Source: Planomicrobium okeanokoites
GTDB lineage: Bacteria > Bacillota > Bacilli > Bacillales_A > Planococcaceae
Reading direction: 5' to 3'
Length of the DNA stretch: 64,000 bases
NCBI RefSeq assembly: GCF_003428875.1
Contig: NZ_QQRS01000002.1
Location: 310,001 to 374,000, forward strand
A model generated the notes under the pieces. The model was not told the origin of the DNA, did not search any database, and saw only the letters and a list, made by a program, of their open reading frames with translations. Positions 51,042 through 57,496 of this stretch are shown here, piece after piece. Both the position numbers and the translations under genes were made by a program. The first letter of the stretch is position 1. Each line of letters opens with the position of its first letter.

Positions 51042-52226
51042 TCAATTACTCCAGGCGGCTGCCTGTTTTCTTAAGCGGCCATAATATGACCAGATGCGCA
51101 CGATGAATGTGCCAAATATCAGTACTGCCAGAAGCATCATGCCGCTGCTGTTCCATAAAAACCTATCCTGAATTGTATCTGCACTACTCATAATATTGAT
51201 GATGAAATAAATATAGAAAGCAACAAGCGGCGAGAACATGGCCGTATAAGTCAGCGCAATCCTTTTTGCGTGTTTGAGCCGGCTGCTTTGATCGCTGTAC
51301 AGTTGCGGCCGCTCTTCGGTTTCACCATAAGTTTTGCTCCAGATCGTCCACTTCTCCATATTCGAAAACGAAGTGAACTCTTCATGCCATCCCGCTTCCC
51401 GGTGGATGGCAAAATAACTCTCGGTCGGCCCTCGCTGATAATCTATACTGTATGCAATCCGGCGGGGCTCACCTTTAACGAAGTGGAAGATGGTACCGAT
51501 TTTATTGACCCGGTAAAGGTTTAAACCGCGCTGTTCCATCGACTCCAGCCATTGTTCCATTTTATCGGGCGAATACATCCAGCTGAATTTTACCTTCGTC
51601 ACCCAGCGCCCGGCCTTCTTCAATTCCTTTTCACCCTGCTGATCGATTTCATCGACTGGCCAGAATCCATCTGTCGTTCCATCAAGTTCCTTATTCGTCC
51701 CGGTGATTTTGGCGATCGAATAAATTCCGAGAACCATGGTTCCCAACAGGATCGCGAAGAAGATAAATGTCAGGATCCACAGCGGACTTTCCACTATATT
51801 AATGCCGCCGTCCTGTCTGTAGGAAGAAGCGAGCATTGAAATATTCGCCATCAGCATACCGGCGACATAAAAGGAAATTCCATAGTAAATGTATGTAATC
51901 ATGCGGTTATGCTTAATGATCCCCTCACGAATCGGTGATGTTTTTATAGCGCTTTCGGGCTGCTCATTAAAAGTGAATTCCCAGTTGCCTGCGGTTCCAG
52001 CCTTTTCCCAGCCTTCCGCCTGCAGCGTTTTCGGCAATACGGACGAACTCATCTTGTTATAGGCTATGCGGTACACGCGAGTCGCCGGTTCCTGCTCCTG
52101 AAAATAAAAGCAGCGCGTCCAACGGTTCAGCTTGGTAAAGATCAACCCTTGTGCCGCCATCTCTGCCAGCCAGTCTTCTGTTTGCTTCACATCATAACTC
52201 CAGAATGGCCTGTAAATTTTCTTCAT
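51042..52226 (-). CDS. DUF2812 domain membrane protein
   Basis: A 394-residue protein with two DUF2812-like soluble parts, residues about 1-85 (KKIYRPFWSYDVKQTEDWLAEMAAQGLIF) and about 205-295 (SWMYSPDKMEQWLESMEQRGLNL). Each is followed by a pair of transmembrane helices (about 110-180 and 320-385). The duplication is visible in the repeated W-L-E/A-M-QGL motif. DUF2812 proteins are almost always encoded next to a PadR regulator, as here, with a 4-base overlap. Their function is unknown. Confidence 0.88.
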   Translation of the reverse strand: MKKIYRPFWSYDVKQTEDWLAEMAAQGLIFTKLNRWTRCFYFQEQEPATRVYRIAYNKMSSSVLPKTLQAEGWEKAGTAGNWEFTFNEQPESAIKTSPIREGIIKHNRMITYIYYGISFYVAGMLMANISMLASSYRQDGGINIVESPLWILTFIFFAILLGTMVLGIYSIAKITGTNKELDGTTDGFWPVDEIDQQGEKELKKAGRWVTKVKFSWMYSPDKMEQWLESMEQRGLNLYRVNKIGTIFHFVKGEPRRIAYSIDYQRGPTESYFAIHREAGWHEEFTSFSNMEKWTIWSKTYGETEERPQLYSDQSSRLKHAKRIALTYTAMFSPLVAFYIYFIINIMSSADTIQDRFLWNSSGMMLLAVLIFGTFIVRIWSYYGRLRKQAAAWSN

Positions 52227-52552
52227 CCGAATTCCCCCTCGAACGCAATTGCATTGCGATGCACTTCTTTAATCCTCGTTATTTCCACTTTCATCAATTC
52301 TTTGCCGGCATCTGTGATCTCATAGACGGTCTTCCGCTGTTCATCAGCGAACACCGTGATCACGCCATCTTTCTGCATCTTCGTCAACGTGCCGTAAACC
52401 GTGCCGGAGCCAAGCACCAGGCGGCCGGCTGTAATATCTTCCACATGCTTGACGATGCCGTAGCCATGCCGCGGCTCCGTTAATGACAATAAAATATAAA
52501 AAGCCGTCTCGGTCATCGGCACATATTTCTTCAGCATTTTCTGGATTTCCAC
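52223..52552 (-). CDS. PadR-family transcriptional regulator
   Basis: A 109-residue winged-helix regulator. Typical features are PMTETAFYILLSLTEPRHGYGIVKHVE and LGSGTVYGTLTKMQKDGVITVF. The start is GTG at 52552 behind GAGGG. It overlaps the DUF2812 gene by 4 bases, so the two are made together and the regulator probably controls its own operon. PadR proteins often respond to membrane or antibiotic stress; the signal here is unknown. Confidence 0.9.
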   Translation of the reverse strand: MEIQKMLKKYVPMTETAFYILLSLTEPRHGYGIVKHVEDITAGRLVLGSGTVYGTLTKMQKDGVITVFADEQRKTVYEITDAGKELMKVEITRIKEVHRNAIAFEGEFG

Positions 52553-52816: not shown

Positions 52817-53296
52817 TCAAGTCGCTTTGCGTTTTCTCTTTTCATCAGCTTCCACCAGTCGCCTGACCACTGCTTCCACAAACTTTTCACACCGCACCAG
52901 ATCTTGTTCCTGCGGCATCAGTTCGATCTTCAGCGTCGCAGCCAAATTAGTGTGAACATACAGCATGTCACGGAAGCGGTTGACCGCTCCGCAGAATTCC
53001 GCAAAGAAGCTGTCCCCTGTCCCGAACACGGCCGTCACCAGTTCGGGACGCCGCAATTCTTCAAATGCTTCAAACAGCTCCTGCATCTCTGCCGGAATTT
53101 CTCCGCTTCCCCATGTATACGTGCCGACGATAACTATATCGTAACGTCCGAGTTTATTTATATCGAAATGATCGATCTCATAGACGTCGGGCAAAAAGCC
53201 TGCAGCCCGGAAACGTTCCGTCAAAACTTCAGCCACCGCCCCAGTATTGCCGGTGACCGATGCATAGACAAGAGCGATTTTCTGATTACAATTCAT
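52817..53296 (-). CDS. Flavodoxin-like protein of the ribonucleotide reductase operon
   Basis: A protein of about 159 residues with the FMN phosphate loop ALVYASVTGNTGAVAEVL and later loops VGTYTWGSGEIP and FGTGDSFFAEFCGAV, as in short-chain flavodoxins. It is longer than typical NrdI (about 130) and I cannot call it NrdI. The gene overlaps the end of nrdB by 11 bases if the ATG at 53296 is used, or 20 if the ATG at 53305 is used. The position suggests it supplies electrons for making or repairing the NrdB metal-radical cofactor. Confidence 0.85.
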   Translation of the reverse strand: MNCNQKIALVYASVTGNTGAVAEVLTERFRAAGFLPDVYEIDHFDINKLGRYDIVIVGTYTWGSGEIPAEMQELFEAFEELRRPELVTAVFGTGDSFFAEFCGAVNRFRDMLYVHTNLAATLKIELMPQEQDLVRCEKFVEAVVRRLVEADEKRKRKAT

Positions 53297-54332
53297 CAAA
53301 CCCATTGGATTGGGACACTTTCGAATACGTGCGCGATTTCTGTTCGAAGAAATCCGATTTCGTGCCGTTCATCATATCATCGCCGAATACCTGGATCCAT
53401 GGCATGGGATTGCTGCGTTCTTCGTAGAGATTTTTCATGCCCAGCTGGCGCAACCGTTTATTTGCAAGATATTCGACGTAATCGCCGAATTCATCCAAAT
53501 CGAGTCCTTCGATATCCCCCAGGATATACTCGGCCCATTCTTTTTCAAGCTGTACGGCCTGATCCACCGTCCGGTATATATAAGCGATATTCTCTTCATT
53601 ATTCAACTCGGGATTTTCCGTCAATAGGATGCGGACAAACTGACCGATGAAGTAAGCATGCTGCATCTCGTCACGCTGGATATAACTGATCATCGTGCTC
53701 GTTTTCAGCATCTTCTGCTGACGCGCCAGGTGATAGAAGAATGCAAAGCCGGCATAGAAATAAATGCCTTCGAGGTTGATCGAATTGATGCCCAGCTGGA
53801 ATAAAGTCTGCGGCGTCGGGTTCTGGCGGAATTCTTCGTAAGCATCAAGAATCAAATCATTGCGCTTCCGCACGACCGGATCGCTTTTCGCCTGGTTGAA
53901 GCGCTCGTTCTGCTCAGCGACCGACACAAGCGAACTCAGAATATAGGAATACGATTCGTTATGGACCGCTTCCTGCTGCGAGATGACCGCAAAAATCGCT
54001 TTGAAACTTGAGTCGGTCACATAATCCATCGCCATCGTCATTGTCGGCGTCTGCAAGGAATCGAGAGAGGCCAGCTGCGTATTGATGCGCAGGAAGACAT
54101 CGCGCTCCGTATCCGTCAGGTGATCCCATTGTTTGATGTCGTCCTGCATATTGATTTCCTGCGCTTTCCAGAAATTCGACAGTAACGTTTGATACAAATC
54201 GTACATCTGCGGATAGGCAATATCGTTCCAATTCAATAATCCGGAAGATTTACCGTTCAGTATGCCTGTCGATTTATTTGGGTGCTCAGGGTTGAGCAAT
54301 TTGATCTTCGTTAATGGTGAATCGATTGCCAT
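53286..54332 (-). CDS. nrdB: Ribonucleotide reductase class I small subunit
   Basis: A 348-residue R2 protein that holds a dimetal site and a Tyr radical. Ligand motifs are QEAVHNESY (Glu, His and the radical Tyr four residues after His), NLEGIYFYAGF (Glu) and QRDEMQHAYF (Glu, His). The Tyr argues against the Tyr-less class Ic type. The start is ATG 54332, 7 bases after GGGAGG; ATG 54335 is too close. It lies 13 bases after nrdA. Confidence 0.94.
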   Translation of the reverse strand: MAIDSPLTKIKLLNPEHPNKSTGILNGKSSGLLNWNDIAYPQMYDLYQTLLSNFWKAQEINMQDDIKQWDHLTDTERDVFLRINTQLASLDSLQTPTMTMAMDYVTDSSFKAIFAVISQQEAVHNESYSYILSSLVSVAEQNERFNQAKSDPVVRKRNDLILDAYEEFRQNPTPQTLFQLGINSINLEGIYFYAGFAFFYHLARQQKMLKTSTMISYIQRDEMQHAYFIGQFVRILLTENPELNNEENIAYIYRTVDQAVQLEKEWAEYILGDIEGLDLDEFGDYVEYLANKRLRQLGMKNLYEERSNPMPWIQVFGDDMMNGTKSDFFEQKSRTYSKVSQSNGFDEL

Positions 54333-54345
54333 CATTAGTCCTCCC

Positions 54346-56628
54346 TTAGCTTTGGCACGCTTCGCATTCTTCGATTTCTGCCTGTGAAGTGCTGCGTACG
54401 TAATAAGTCGTTTTCAATCCCTGCTGCCATGCTTCCAGGTGAAGTTCCAGCAATTCCTTCGCTTTCACGGTATGCGGTACATACAGATTGAAGCTGATTG
54501 CCTGGTCGATATGGCGCTGTCTCGCCGCATTTTGGCGGATGCTCCATTTCTGATCCAGTACATGTCTCGCACGGCGGTAATAATCATACGTCCGGTGATC
54601 GAGATCCGGCGCTGTCACTTTAAATTTGAAGTTCTTCTTCTCTTCCGCATACTCCACGGCATAGAGCGGATCGATTCCGTCTGTGGAGCCGCCGATTTTT
54701 GCGGTCGACGAGTTCGGTGCAACAGCCATCATCCAGCCATTGCGGACGCCGTGTTCGGTGATTTCTTTTTGCAGCTCCTGCCATTTCTCACCTTCATAGC
54801 CTTTGCGGCTGAAGTATTCGCCCGTCTGCCATTCCGAGCCGGCAAATTCACTATAGCTGCCTTTTTCTTTCGCCAGTTCCATCGACGAGCGGATAGAGTG
54901 ATAGGCAATTTCTTCATATAATTTATCCGCAAATTCAACGGCTCTTTCCGTTTCCCAGTGGATGCCTTCAAGCGCCAATAAGTGATGCCAGCCGAAAGTT
55001 CCGAGACCAACTGCGCGATATTTTTTATTCGTGGCATCGGCCTGCCCTACAGAAATCGTGTTCAAGTCGATGACATTATCCAGCATGCGCATCTGAATCG
55101 GCACCAAGCGCTCTAGAACGTCCGCTTTCACCGCGCGCGGCAGATTGATCGATGACAGGTTGCAGACCACGAAATCGCCCGGTTTGCGTACCATCACCAG
55201 ATTGCCGTCTTCGTCCGTGAATTCTTTGACAATTGTGGTAGCTGACATATTTTGAGTGATTTCGCTGCACAAATTACTGCAATAAATCGACGTCAATCCA
55301 CGTCCACGCAGATGCTTGTTCGGATTCTGGCGGTTGACTTCATCGCGGTAGAACATATACGGCGTGCCAGTTTCAAGCTGTGACACCATAATGCGCGCCA
55401 TGATATCCATTGCCCGGTACGTCTTTCTCGGCAATAAAGGATTAGCAACCGCTTCTTCATATTTTTCGGTGAAGTAGGCACGGTCGGTATCATCATAGAA
55501 ATCTTCCAGACCAAGTGCGTTGCCGTTCGCATCTTTCCAGCCCATCACTTGCTTAACCTGATGCGGGCAGAATGTGTTCCACTCGCCGACACTGCGGCCA
55601 TTTTCATCCGTTTCCTTCAATTTCTCCATAAACAGATCCGGAATTGAAACACCCGTGAAAATATCATGTGCTTTCCGGCGCTCATCCCCGTTATTCGTTT
55701 TCAGATCCAGGAAGCCGTTCATGATGTCTTTATGGAAAACGTCCAGGTAAACCGCCACCGCTCCCTGACGCTGCCCGAGCTGATCGACGCTGACCGCCGT
55801 ATCGTTTACGAGGCGGATCCACGGGATGATGCCTGATGAATTGCCTTTGAATTTCTTGATGTCCGATCCAAGCGCGCGCACTTTGCCATAATAAATGCCG
55901 AGTCCGCCGCCGTCTTTGCTGAGCCGCGCAATGTCCCAATTGTTCAGGTAGATGCCGTCCAGCGAATCATCCACCGTGTCGATAAAGCAGGAAGACAATT
56001 GGCCAAAGCTTTTGCCTGCATTCGACAGAGTCGGCGTCGCCACCGTCATATACAGATTACTCATAGCCCAGTAAGCTTCCCGCACAAGTTCCGTCCGCTT
56101 GTCAGCCGGCTCGTTCTGCATCAGCGCCATCGCAATGACCAAAAAGCGCTCCTGCGGCAATTCATGGAGATTGCCTTCATAATCTTTTGCCAGGTAGCGG
56201 TCCGCCAACAGGAACAAGCCGATGTAATTGAATAATTGGTCGCGTTCCGGCTCGATGACTGCACCCAGTTCCCTGATTTCCGCTTCGGAATAAGCTGCCA
56301 GCAACTCATTCGAATAAATATCGATACGTGAGAGTTTTTCAACAAGCTGATAGAAATCACCGTACTTTTCCTGCGCTTCGTAGCCGCGGCTCGCAGCCGC
56401 TTGCCGATAAAGCTCGCTGCAATAAAGTTCTGCTGCAAGAAATGTCCATTTCGGTTCATCCATCGAAATGCGGTTCAGCGCATAAAGCATGGATTGTTCC
56501 GTATCAATCTTGCCATCCAGCTCGCCGATTTTATTGCGCAACGCTGTAGTATCGAGACCATGCAACCGCTCTGCACGTTCCAATGCTTTTTCGACTGCAT
56601 CCATTTCTGTTGAGATTCCCATTTTCAT
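54346..56628 (-). CDS. nrdA: Ribonucleotide reductase class I large subunit, shortened ATP-cone
   Basis: A 760-residue R1 protein that reduces ribonucleotides. The active site has Asn452, Cys454 and Glu456 in SNLCSEITQ, the redox Cys pair Cys214 (QLSSCF) and Cys489 (VVCNLSS), the radical-path Tyr pair Tyr742-Tyr743 and the C-terminal thiol pair CEAC. The N-terminus lacks the usual VxKRDG start of the ATP-cone and only the end of that region remains, so dATP feedback inhibition may be weak or absent. One base separates it from the thioesterase stop. The operon is preceded by NrdR boxes and a cobalamin riboswitch. Confidence 0.95.
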   Translation of the reverse strand: MKMGISTEMDAVEKALERAERLHGLDTTALRNKIGELDGKIDTEQSMLYALNRISMDEPKWTFLAAELYCSELYRQAAASRGYEAQEKYGDFYQLVEKLSRIDIYSNELLAAYSEAEIRELGAVIEPERDQLFNYIGLFLLADRYLAKDYEGNLHELPQERFLVIAMALMQNEPADKRTELVREAYWAMSNLYMTVATPTLSNAGKSFGQLSSCFIDTVDDSLDGIYLNNWDIARLSKDGGGLGIYYGKVRALGSDIKKFKGNSSGIIPWIRLVNDTAVSVDQLGQRQGAVAVYLDVFHKDIMNGFLDLKTNNGDERRKAHDIFTGVSIPDLFMEKLKETDENGRSVGEWNTFCPHQVKQVMGWKDANGNALGLEDFYDDTDRAYFTEKYEEAVANPLLPRKTYRAMDIMARIMVSQLETGTPYMFYRDEVNRQNPNKHLRGRGLTSIYCSNLCSEITQNMSATTIVKEFTDEDGNLVMVRKPGDFVVCNLSSINLPRAVKADVLERLVPIQMRMLDNVIDLNTISVGQADATNKKYRAVGLGTFGWHHLLALEGIHWETERAVEFADKLYEEIAYHSIRSSMELAKEKGSYSEFAGSEWQTGEYFSRKGYEGEKWQELQKEITEHGVRNGWMMAVAPNSSTAKIGGSTDGIDPLYAVEYAEEKKNFKFKVTAPDLDHRTYDYYRRARHVLDQKWSIRQNAARQRHIDQAISFNLYVPHTVKAKELLELHLEAWQQGLKTTYYVRSTSQAEIEECEACQS

Positions 56629-56629
56629 A

Positions 56630-57115
56630 TCAGACCAGCTCCTTCGCGAATTCGTTCAGTTTCATACGGCGTTCTTTCCGTGCCTGTGCACTTTTGAAAA
56701 GATTCTTTTCTTTGTCCGTTTCAGGGATGACTCCGGGAACAGGCGTCGGCTTGCTGTTTTCATCGACGGCCACCATTGTCAGGATGGCGGTGGTCGTCAG
56801 CGTGCGTCCGCGCGTTTCAATATCCTGGCATTCCGCTTTCACATACACTTCCATCGAAGTCCTGCCGGTTGAAATGACCACGCCTTCCAGGATCAGCACA
56901 TTGCCGATCCTTGCCGATGACAGGAAATTGACTGAATCGATCGATGCCGTCACCACGACTTTGCCGCTGTGCTTCATCGCCGTGATCGCAGCGATTTCAT
57001 CAATATAGGCGAGCACCGTTCCGCCAAAAATCGTGCCCATATGATTCGTATCCGGCGGCAGCACCAGCCTCGTTTGAATTGTCCTCGATATGCCCGCTGA
57101 AATCTGCTGTTCCAT
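56630..57115 (-). CDS. Acyl-CoA thioesterase (hotdog fold, YkhA/YciA-like)
   Basis: A 161-residue hotdog thioesterase with NHMGTIFGGTVLAYIDEIAAITAMKHS and VTASIDSVNFLSSARIGNVL, the YkhA/YciA type. The ATG at 57115 follows GAAGGG at about 11 bases; the upstream frame runs into a terminator and the riboswitch and cannot be coding. It is the first gene behind the riboswitch, directly joined to nrdA. A metabolic link between an acyl-CoA thioesterase and deoxynucleotide synthesis is not obvious. One idea is cobalamin status and propionyl or methylmalonyl-CoA turnover; this is speculation. Confidence 0.9.
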   Translation of the reverse strand: MEQQISAGISRTIQTRLVLPPDTNHMGTIFGGTVLAYIDEIAAITAMKHSGKVVVTASIDSVNFLSSARIGNVLILEGVVISTGRTSMEVYVKAECQDIETRGRTLTTTAILTMVAVDENSKPTPVPGVIPETDKEKNLFKSAQARKERRMKLNEFAKELV

Positions 57116-57152
57116 TAAATCATCATCCCTTCCGAATAAAAAACAACCATAG

Positions 57153-57183
57153 AAAAACCCATCTTCTCCGGAGAGAGGATGGG
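57153..57183 (-). terminator. Riboswitch-controlled terminator with antiterminator partner
   Basis: CCCATCCTCTC pairs with GAGAAGATGGG (one mismatch), followed by five T on the minus strand (57153-57157). An upstream leader segment, CTTCTCCGG (57266-57274), is fully complementary to CCGGAGAAG of this hairpin. That provides an alternative antiterminator pairing. Confidence 0.85.
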
Positions 57184-57286
57184 TTGAATAACGCAGCATA
57201 AAAGGAATGGAGCAGCCGAAAATTGCTTCGGTTCCTGTTAAGACCATCGTTACACCCCCCAGCTCCCGGAGAAGGCAATTAACATA

Positions 57287-57443
57287 TAACGAAGGCAGGT
57301 CTCCTGGCTTGTGCGTCATCCTTTGCTATGGCCTTCCCATCTTTCGACAGTGGTTTCCATAGCTCGTCAGCACTTACAGTTGCGGGTACAGCTCCGGATT
57401 TTCACCGGCTTCCCTATTAAGCCTTTTCAGGCACCTTCGTTAT
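57287..57443 (-). promoter_or_regulatory. Adenosylcobalamin riboswitch
   Basis: About 157 bases on the minus strand with all hallmarks of the class: a closing stem ACGAAGG..CCTTCGT, GGTGCCTG near the 5' end, AATAGGGAAGCCGGTG, AATCCGGAGCTGTACCCGC, AACTGTAAGTG, and the B12 box AGCCAGGAGACCTGCC at the 3' side. It is followed by a terminator, so binding of adenosylcobalamin should turn off the thioesterase-nrdA-nrdB-flavodoxin operon. Confidence 0.95.
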
Positions 57444-57449
57444 CGGTTT

Positions 57450-57465
57450 TTACTATATATTGTGT
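57450..57465. promoter_or_regulatory. NrdR box 1
   Basis: On the minus strand ACACAATATATAGTAA, matching the NrdR consensus acaCwAtATaTwGtgt at 14 of 16 positions. It lies about 32-47 bases after the predicted transcription start. Confidence 0.8.
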
Positions 57466-57480
57466 TTTCTTATGTACTAT

Positions 57481-57496
57481 ACACTAAATATTGTAT
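57481..57496. promoter_or_regulatory. NrdR box 2
   Basis: On the minus strand ATACAATATTTAGTGT, again 14 of 16 matches. The distance to box 1 is 31 bases start to start (three helical turns), as in known NrdR operators. Confidence 0.8.

What the first reader, a model, noticed from the sequence alone, without database searches (positions are those of the whole stretch)
57287..57443. Cobalamin riboswitch in front of an aerobic class I ribonucleotide reductase operon
A complete adenosylcobalamin riboswitch precedes thioesterase-nrdA-nrdB-flavodoxin. The only well-known case of B12 control over class I ribonucleotide reductase is in Streptomyces. In a Planococcaceae-type genome this predicts that the B12-independent enzyme is replaced by a B12-dependent class II enzyme when cobalamin is present.
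Basis: partly seen in the sequence, partly recalled or inferred. Interest (0 to 1): 0.85.

Follow-up and report, generated by a model that had tools for sequence, protein, structure and literature searches.

The report
Vitamin B12 switch on DNA-building genes
A vitamin B12-sensing RNA switch sits in front of the genes for this Planococcus-type bacterium's B12-independent DNA-precursor enzyme, very probably turning it down when B12 is available and a B12-dependent enzyme can do the job; the kind of switch is already known, but here relatives that lack the B12-dependent enzyme also lack the switch.

Summary
A complete cobalamin riboswitch (Rfam RF00174, 119.3 bits, E 2.5e-29) lies on the minus strand at 57277-57453, ahead of a tight thioesterase-nrdA-nrdB-flavodoxin operon, with a terminator and a competing antiterminator between. 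The genome (Planococcus/Planomicrobium type) has a class II enzyme NrdJ, no class III enzyme and no other class I small subunit. Tandem NrdR-like boxes precede the aptamer.

Comparison is the strongest evidence. Within the family, 119 of 120 NrdJ-bearing genomes examined carry the riboswitch on a class I operon (nrdAB or nrdEF), against 0 of 20 NrdJ-less genomes, which still have cobalamin riboswitches elsewhere. One NrdJ-less genome keeps a decayed aptamer. Outside the family the link runs one way: 30 of 30 tested riboswitch-bearing Bacillaceae-type genomes have NrdJ, but so do 8 of 20 without it.

The rarity claim is not: cases are in print for Bacillus methanolicus, Priestia megaterium, Propionibacterium acnes and delta-proteobacteria. 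A new member of a known kind, with unusually clean co-occurrence evidence.

The parts
57481..57496 (.). upstream NrdR-like box, 31 bp from the next
   Evidence: 14 of 16 matches to a recalled NrdR consensus; the pair is the only one in the window scoring over 24 of 32 at spacing 30-32
57450..57465 (.). downstream NrdR-like box, touching the 5' end of the aptamer
   Evidence: 14 of 16 matches
57277..57453 (-). cobalamin riboswitch aptamer (RF00174); P1 pairs 57434-57443 with 57286-57295
   Evidence: cmscan; P1 read from the sequence and the fold
57163..57274 (-). antiterminator: long hairpin that uses the 5' arm of the terminator
   Evidence: 57163-57276 folds at -45.6 kcal/mol, z -3.98, 0 of 200 shuffles as low
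57156..57185 (-). intrinsic terminator hairpin, followed by a U run
   Evidence: 57151-57187 folds at -18.4 kcal/mol, z -4.77, 0 of 200 shuffles as low; the simple consensus scanner did not report it
56630..57118 (-). hotdog acyl-CoA thioesterase, first gene of the operon
   Evidence: PF03061; closest solved chain 1vpm acyl-CoA hydrolase, E 3.4e-58
54346..56628 (-). nrdA, class I ribonucleotide reductase large subunit, 760 aa
   Evidence: NF006665 1206.9 bits, cut-off 1057; PF00317 and PF02867, no ATP-cone match at E 0.001
53286..54335 (-). nrdB, class I small subunit, 349 aa
   Evidence: NF007184 401.2 bits, cut-off 310; closest solved chain 2rcc, E 1.7e-104
52817..53305 (-). flavodoxin, overlaps the end of nrdB
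   Evidence: PF00258; a homologue follows nrdB within 250 bases in 80 of 80 named loci

Best explanation
A transcription-attenuating, cobalamin-OFF riboswitch selects between two ribonucleotide reductases. Shown by sequence: aptamer, terminator and a mutually exclusive antiterminator ahead of the only class I operon; a class II NrdJ elsewhere with no riboswitch found at its gene; NrdR-like boxes ahead of both. NrdR (present) probably sets the overall level of both; the riboswitch decides which enzyme is used. The switch is useful only while NrdJ is there, so it disappears when NrdJ does.
For: Aptamer 119.3 bits. NrdJ present and one class I small subunit only; no class III NrdD. Terminator and antiterminator overlap, each better than all 200 shuffles; the two full-leader states are within 1.4 kcal/mol by a rough calculation. 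A terminator-like hairpin follows the aptamer in 85 of 91 family leaders, against 56 of 273 crude shuffles. Family survey: riboswitch on a class I operon in 119 of 120 NrdJ-bearing and 0 of 20 NrdJ-less genomes; lack of NrdJ confirmed by HMM in all 21 NrdJ-less family genomes. Those genomes still have cobalamin riboswitches elsewhere (151 of 151 genomes have at least one), so B12 sensing in general is not lost. In 13 riboswitch-less nrdA operons a NrdR-like pair remains. The nrdA tree of 40 rows needs 6 changes of the riboswitch label, at least 4 forced by well-supported branches. G113, which lacks NrdJ, keeps a remnant (37.4 bits with my model; no Rfam hit) with changes in core positions. Outside the family 30 of 30 tested riboswitch-bearing genomes have NrdJ.
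Against: No expression or binding data. In Gracilibacillus-type genomes 8 of 20 riboswitch-less ones do have NrdJ, one of them in fragments (no Rfam cobalamin hit in those 8 loci), so NrdJ does not demand the switch. Three family genomes have a second class I operon without it (G041, G121, G150), and G098 has NrdJ but no switch, though its NrdJ is on a 4,031-base contig of a genome flagged 8% contaminated. In the fold with the terminator enforced the aptamer's P1 is rearranged, so the energy balance is only rough. A test for an L5-L13 kissing loop did not beat mismatched leaders. Promoter-like matches are at chance level. The Fisher p of 2.5e-23 ignores relatedness; the number of independent losses is about five.
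Confidence: 0.92

Rival explanations
1. The element senses a corrinoid other than adenosylcobalamin, or corrinoids broadly, and acts as a general starvation signal rather than a switch matched to NrdJ's cofactor.
For: A paper's title in the search listing says cobalamin riboswitches are broadly sensitive to corrinoid cofactors (PMC9600662; passages only). Ligand choice cannot be read with these tools.
Against: Tight co-occurrence with NrdJ says the output is matched to that enzyme, whichever corrinoids it accepts.
Confidence: 0.2
2. The riboswitch acts mainly on the thioesterase, first gene of the operon, and nrdAB is carried along.
For: The thioesterase is nearest the switch and is in the operon in 22 of 60 riboswitch-bearing named loci (two of them short fragments) and 0 of 20 without.
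Against: In the family the thioesterase was found in 18 of 106 upstream regions, all in two genera and one a fragment, while 91 of the 106 have the riboswitch.
Confidence: 0.03
3. The riboswitch is a relic that no longer works in this genome.
For: Decay is seen in one relative, G113.
Against: Here all 189 positions match at 119.3 bits with terminator and antiterminator; 17 of 17 genomes of the genus, own included, have it ahead of nrdA.
Confidence: 0.04

Closest known systems
Streptomyces nrdABS cobalamin riboswitch (Borovok 2006; paper not held; cited in a passage of PMC4342826)
   Same: Cobalamin riboswitch ahead of a class Ia reductase operon in an organism with a class II enzyme (the latter recalled)
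   Different: Bacillota host; the operon here has thioesterase and flavodoxin, and no third gene nrdS
Bacillus methanolicus MGA3 (AdoCbl)-nrdAB (PMC4342826, passages)
   Same: Cobalamin riboswitch ahead of nrdAB in a Bacillus, seen in RNA-seq
   Different: No thioesterase named in the passages; that genome has three putative cobalamin riboswitches including one on metE, this one has two
Priestia megaterium nrdEF cobalamin riboswitch (PMC8390425, passages)
   Same: Cobalamin riboswitch on the B12-independent reductase in a genome with NrdJ
   Different: nrdEF instead of nrdAB; that species makes cobalamin, while here cobM/cbiF had no match over its cut-off
Propionibacterium acnes nrdAB and nrdDG (PMC3848588, passages)
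   Same: Riboswitch plus an NrdR box on nrdAB, NrdR boxes without riboswitch on nrdRJ
   Different: Not a Bacillota; one box instead of a pair on nrdAB; also has nrdDG

Membership tests
Cobalamin riboswitch (RF00174) | covariance-model score over the gathering threshold, whole model | tested here: met
   119.3 bits against 31.5, positions 1-189 of 189
Cobalamin riboswitch (RF00174) | expression platform with alternative structures | tested here: met
   overlapping terminator and antiterminator
Cobalamin riboswitch (RF00174) | L5-L13 kissing loop (recalled) | tested here: inconclusive
   complementarity no better than with other leaders' loops
Cobalamin riboswitch (RF00174) | binds a cobalamin | not testable with these tools
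   needs in-line probing or calorimetry
B12-controlled B12-independent reductase (Streptomyces type) | riboswitch directly ahead of a class I operon | tested here: met
   one gene, a thioesterase, comes first
B12-controlled B12-independent reductase (Streptomyces type) | class II reductase in the same genome | tested here: met
   NF005991 1642.2 bits, TIGR02504 590.6 bits
B12-controlled B12-independent reductase (Streptomyces type) | repression by cobalamin measured | not testable with these tools
   needs RNA or reporter measurement
NrdR regulon | tandem NrdR boxes about 31 bp apart (consensus and spacing recalled) | tested here: met
   28 of 32 matches at 31 bp; 84 of 91 family leaders score 24 or more, 0 of 1820 crude shuffles do
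NrdR regulon | NrdR protein in the genome | tested here: met
   TIGR00244 231 bits, cut-off 124.65
NrdR regulon | NrdR binds and represses here | not testable with these tools
   needs binding or expression data

The most novel reading that the evidence does not exclude
The operon is a 'no-B12' package rather than only a reductase switch: when cobalamin is missing, both NrdJ and the cobalamin-dependent acyl-CoA mutases stall, and the same riboswitch turns on nrdAB together with an acyl-CoA thioesterase that frees CoA from the acyl-CoAs piling up behind the stalled mutases.
Probability: 0.15. Interest if true: 0.55.

Novelty: new member of a known kind. Interest (0 to 1): 0.42.

Why it matters
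It shows on family scale that a metabolite switch lives and dies with the isoenzyme that makes it useful: 119 of 120 NrdJ-bearing genomes examined have it on a class I operon, 0 of 20 NrdJ-less ones do, for nrdAB and nrdEF alike. It also stacks an RNA switch on probable NrdR control, and predicts that cobalamin supplied by neighbours decides which enzyme makes DNA precursors in bacteria that, like this one, seem unable to make cobalamin.

Tried and rejected
L5-L13 kissing loop: own L5 against own downstream hairpin loops was no better than against other leaders' loops; not claimed.

Consensus promoter scan: 2 sites against 1.7 expected; not claimed. The same scanner did not report the minus-strand terminator, whose stem has an internal mismatch.

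NrdJ as a requirement in both directions: rejected by 8 NrdJ-bearing Gracilibacillus-type genomes without the riboswitch, one with a fragmentary NrdJ.

Rows dropped: in the NrdA survey I kept 106 hits of 55% identity or more and left out second pieces of split genes (G044, G058, G148, G139, G102) and a partial 54% hit in G140. The NrdE set is the 38 hits listed, whose list was cut. In all 140 of 151 family genomes were examined for the operon; 10 NrdJ-bearing genomes and NrdJ-less G050 were not. For NrdJ in named genomes I sent 50 of 61 non-Planococcus loci: all 20 without the riboswitch and 30 of 41 with it. 40 of 91 aptamers went into my model. G116 was NrdJ-less by elimination and confirmed. 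The NrdR-pair search in riboswitch-less operons covered about 1.9 to 2 kb each and had no shuffle control.

Papers not held: Vitreschak 2003, Borovok 2006, Nahvi 2004. All papers cited were seen as passages or listings only. Passages of PMC5962746, PMC8123684, PMC2667541 and PMC6461909 added nothing decisive.

Full report
What is there. On the minus strand, RF00174 matches 57277-57453 over its whole length at 119.3 bits, the only Rfam hit over threshold in the window. Downstream follow an acyl-CoA thioesterase (56630-57118), nrdA (54346-56628), nrdB (53286-54335) and a flavodoxin (52817-53305), with gaps of 1 and 10 bases and one 20-base overlap. The nearest named relatives are Planococcus and Planomicrobium, nrdB up to 98% identical.

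The genome's set of reductases. Two large subunits: this nrdA and an 852-aa protein that is NrdJ by NF005991 (1642.2 bits, cut-off 854). One small subunit. No class III NrdD. The second cobalamin riboswitch of the genome lies on the same strand as, and ahead of, a gene that looks like the B12 ABC-transporter binding protein, my reading of the ORF. The cobM/cbiF family has one match, under its cut-off, so the cell probably imports cobalamin; one family alone does not prove this.

How the leader can switch. Between aptamer and first gene is a terminator at 57156-57185 (-18.4 kcal/mol, z -4.77). A longer hairpin, 57163-57274 (-45.6 kcal/mol, z -3.98), uses the terminator's 5' arm, so both cannot form. 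For aptamer plus platform the antiterminated fold has -102.2 and the best fold with the terminator enforced -100.8 kcal/mol. This is rough, since the second fold also rearranges P1 and no ligand is modelled. That ligand tips the balance to termination is inferred from the known behaviour of such switches. In the family, 85 of 91 leaders have a terminator-like hairpin within 260 bases of the aptamer, against 56 of 273 crude shuffles.

A second control. Two NrdR-like boxes 31 bp apart (57450-57465, 57481-57496) lie at the 5' end of the aptamer. Of 91 family leaders 84 score 24 or more of 32, 72 of these at spacing 31-32; 0 of 1820 crude shuffles reach 24. NrdR is encoded. The own nrdJ also has such a pair, 26 of 32, and my aptamer model, run over the two nrdJ loci L004 and L009, found no riboswitch there at E up to 1. 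So NrdR probably governs both enzymes and the riboswitch only one.

The comparative test. In 151 genomes of the family (19 genera) NrdJ was found in 130 at E up to 1e-100. Upstream regions of 106 nrdA hits were fetched and scanned with Rfam: riboswitch in 91 of 94 from NrdJ-bearing genomes, 0 of 12 from NrdJ-less ones. My own model did not find it in the 15 negatives at E up to 1. For 38 nrdE regions: 28 of 29 from NrdJ-bearing genomes, and among 9 from NrdJ-less ones only one weak remnant. By genome: 119 of 120 against 0 of 20. Lack of NrdJ was checked with TIGR02504: of 38 genomes only the five with a known NrdJ passed the cut-off. The three extra operons without the switch (G041, G121, G150) are further class I operons in genomes whose other one has it; the single genome exception, G098, has NrdJ on a 4,031-base contig and is flagged 8% contaminated.

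Independence. Within genera g3, g7 and g17 single NrdJ-less genomes lack the switch while the congeners with nrdA have both; in g8 and g9 all ten lack the switch, and all but G098 lack NrdJ. On an nrdA tree of 40 rows, 11 without the switch, the label needs 6 changes, at least 4 forced; one of the six is the divergent pair G150 and G041 copy 2. In the 13 other riboswitch-less operons NrdR-like pairs score 25-28 of 32, 312-505 bases before the nrdA match. G113 looks caught in the act: NrdJ gone, aptamer still recognisable at 37.4 bits with my model but altered in positions that its relatives keep, and not listed by Rfam at threshold. Each of the 151 family genomes still has a cobalamin riboswitch somewhere.

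Outside the family. Of 80 named relatives, Planococcus included, 60 have the riboswitch ahead of nrdAB. All 30 tested with it, outside Planococcus, have NrdJ; of 20 without, 12 lack NrdJ and 8 have it (the 12 confirmed). So the switch implies NrdJ; the reverse fails in Gracilibacillus and kin.

What is known. The logic, B12 turning off the B12-independent isozyme, was proposed for nrdDG in delta-proteobacteria in 2004 (PMC545781, passages) and is reported for nrdAB in Bacillus methanolicus, nrdEF in Priestia megaterium and nrdAB and nrdDG in P. acnes. A search for Planococcaceae with riboswitch and ribonucleotide reductase found no paper (open-licence library only). I saw no mention of the co-loss pattern in the listings, or in the passages read, which is weak evidence.

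The thioesterase. It is ahead of nrdA in 18 of 19 genomes of genera g1 and g12, one as a fragment, and in 22 of 60 named riboswitch-bearing loci, two of them fragments, including Cytobacillus, Neobacillus mesonae and Mesobacillus, but 0 of 20 without the switch. The genome has 3 matches to the methylmalonyl-CoA mutase family, whose members use cobalamin (recalled). This suggests, and no more, that the operon also relieves acyl-CoA build-up when cobalamin is short.

Noticed in passing
L210:2385-2560 (genome G113, ahead of nrdE): Decaying cobalamin riboswitch in a genome without NrdJ, altered in core positions that its relatives keep.
   Followed up: yes
window 56630-57118: Acyl-CoA thioesterase carried by the riboswitch-nrdAB operon in Planococcus and some Bacillaceae; fragments in L018 (G130), L128 and L193.
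   Followed up: partly
L133:3016-4058; genomes G044, G058: nrdA is split by about 1 kb in some Planococcus; in L133 the insert holds a 206-aa ORF that looks like a GIY-YIG homing endonuclease (my reading), probably an intron.
   Followed up: partly
nrdJ genes of many genomes: nrdJ is often matched in two to four pieces at recurring places (about residues 265, 482, 653), which suggests repeated introns or inteins.
   Followed up: no
window 52817-57118: The nrdA of this genus is 55-64% identical to that of other family genera except g12 (78-81%), but 73-79% identical to 60 named genomes outside Planococcus, nearly all Bacillaceae types; the operon may have moved between families.
   Followed up: partly
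window 51042-52552: PadR-type regulator followed by a DUF2812 protein, about 260 bases after the flavodoxin, probably a separate unit.
   Followed up: no
L034:1563-1667 and L044:1619-1727: Guanidine-I riboswitches near nrdA in genus g4.
   Followed up: no
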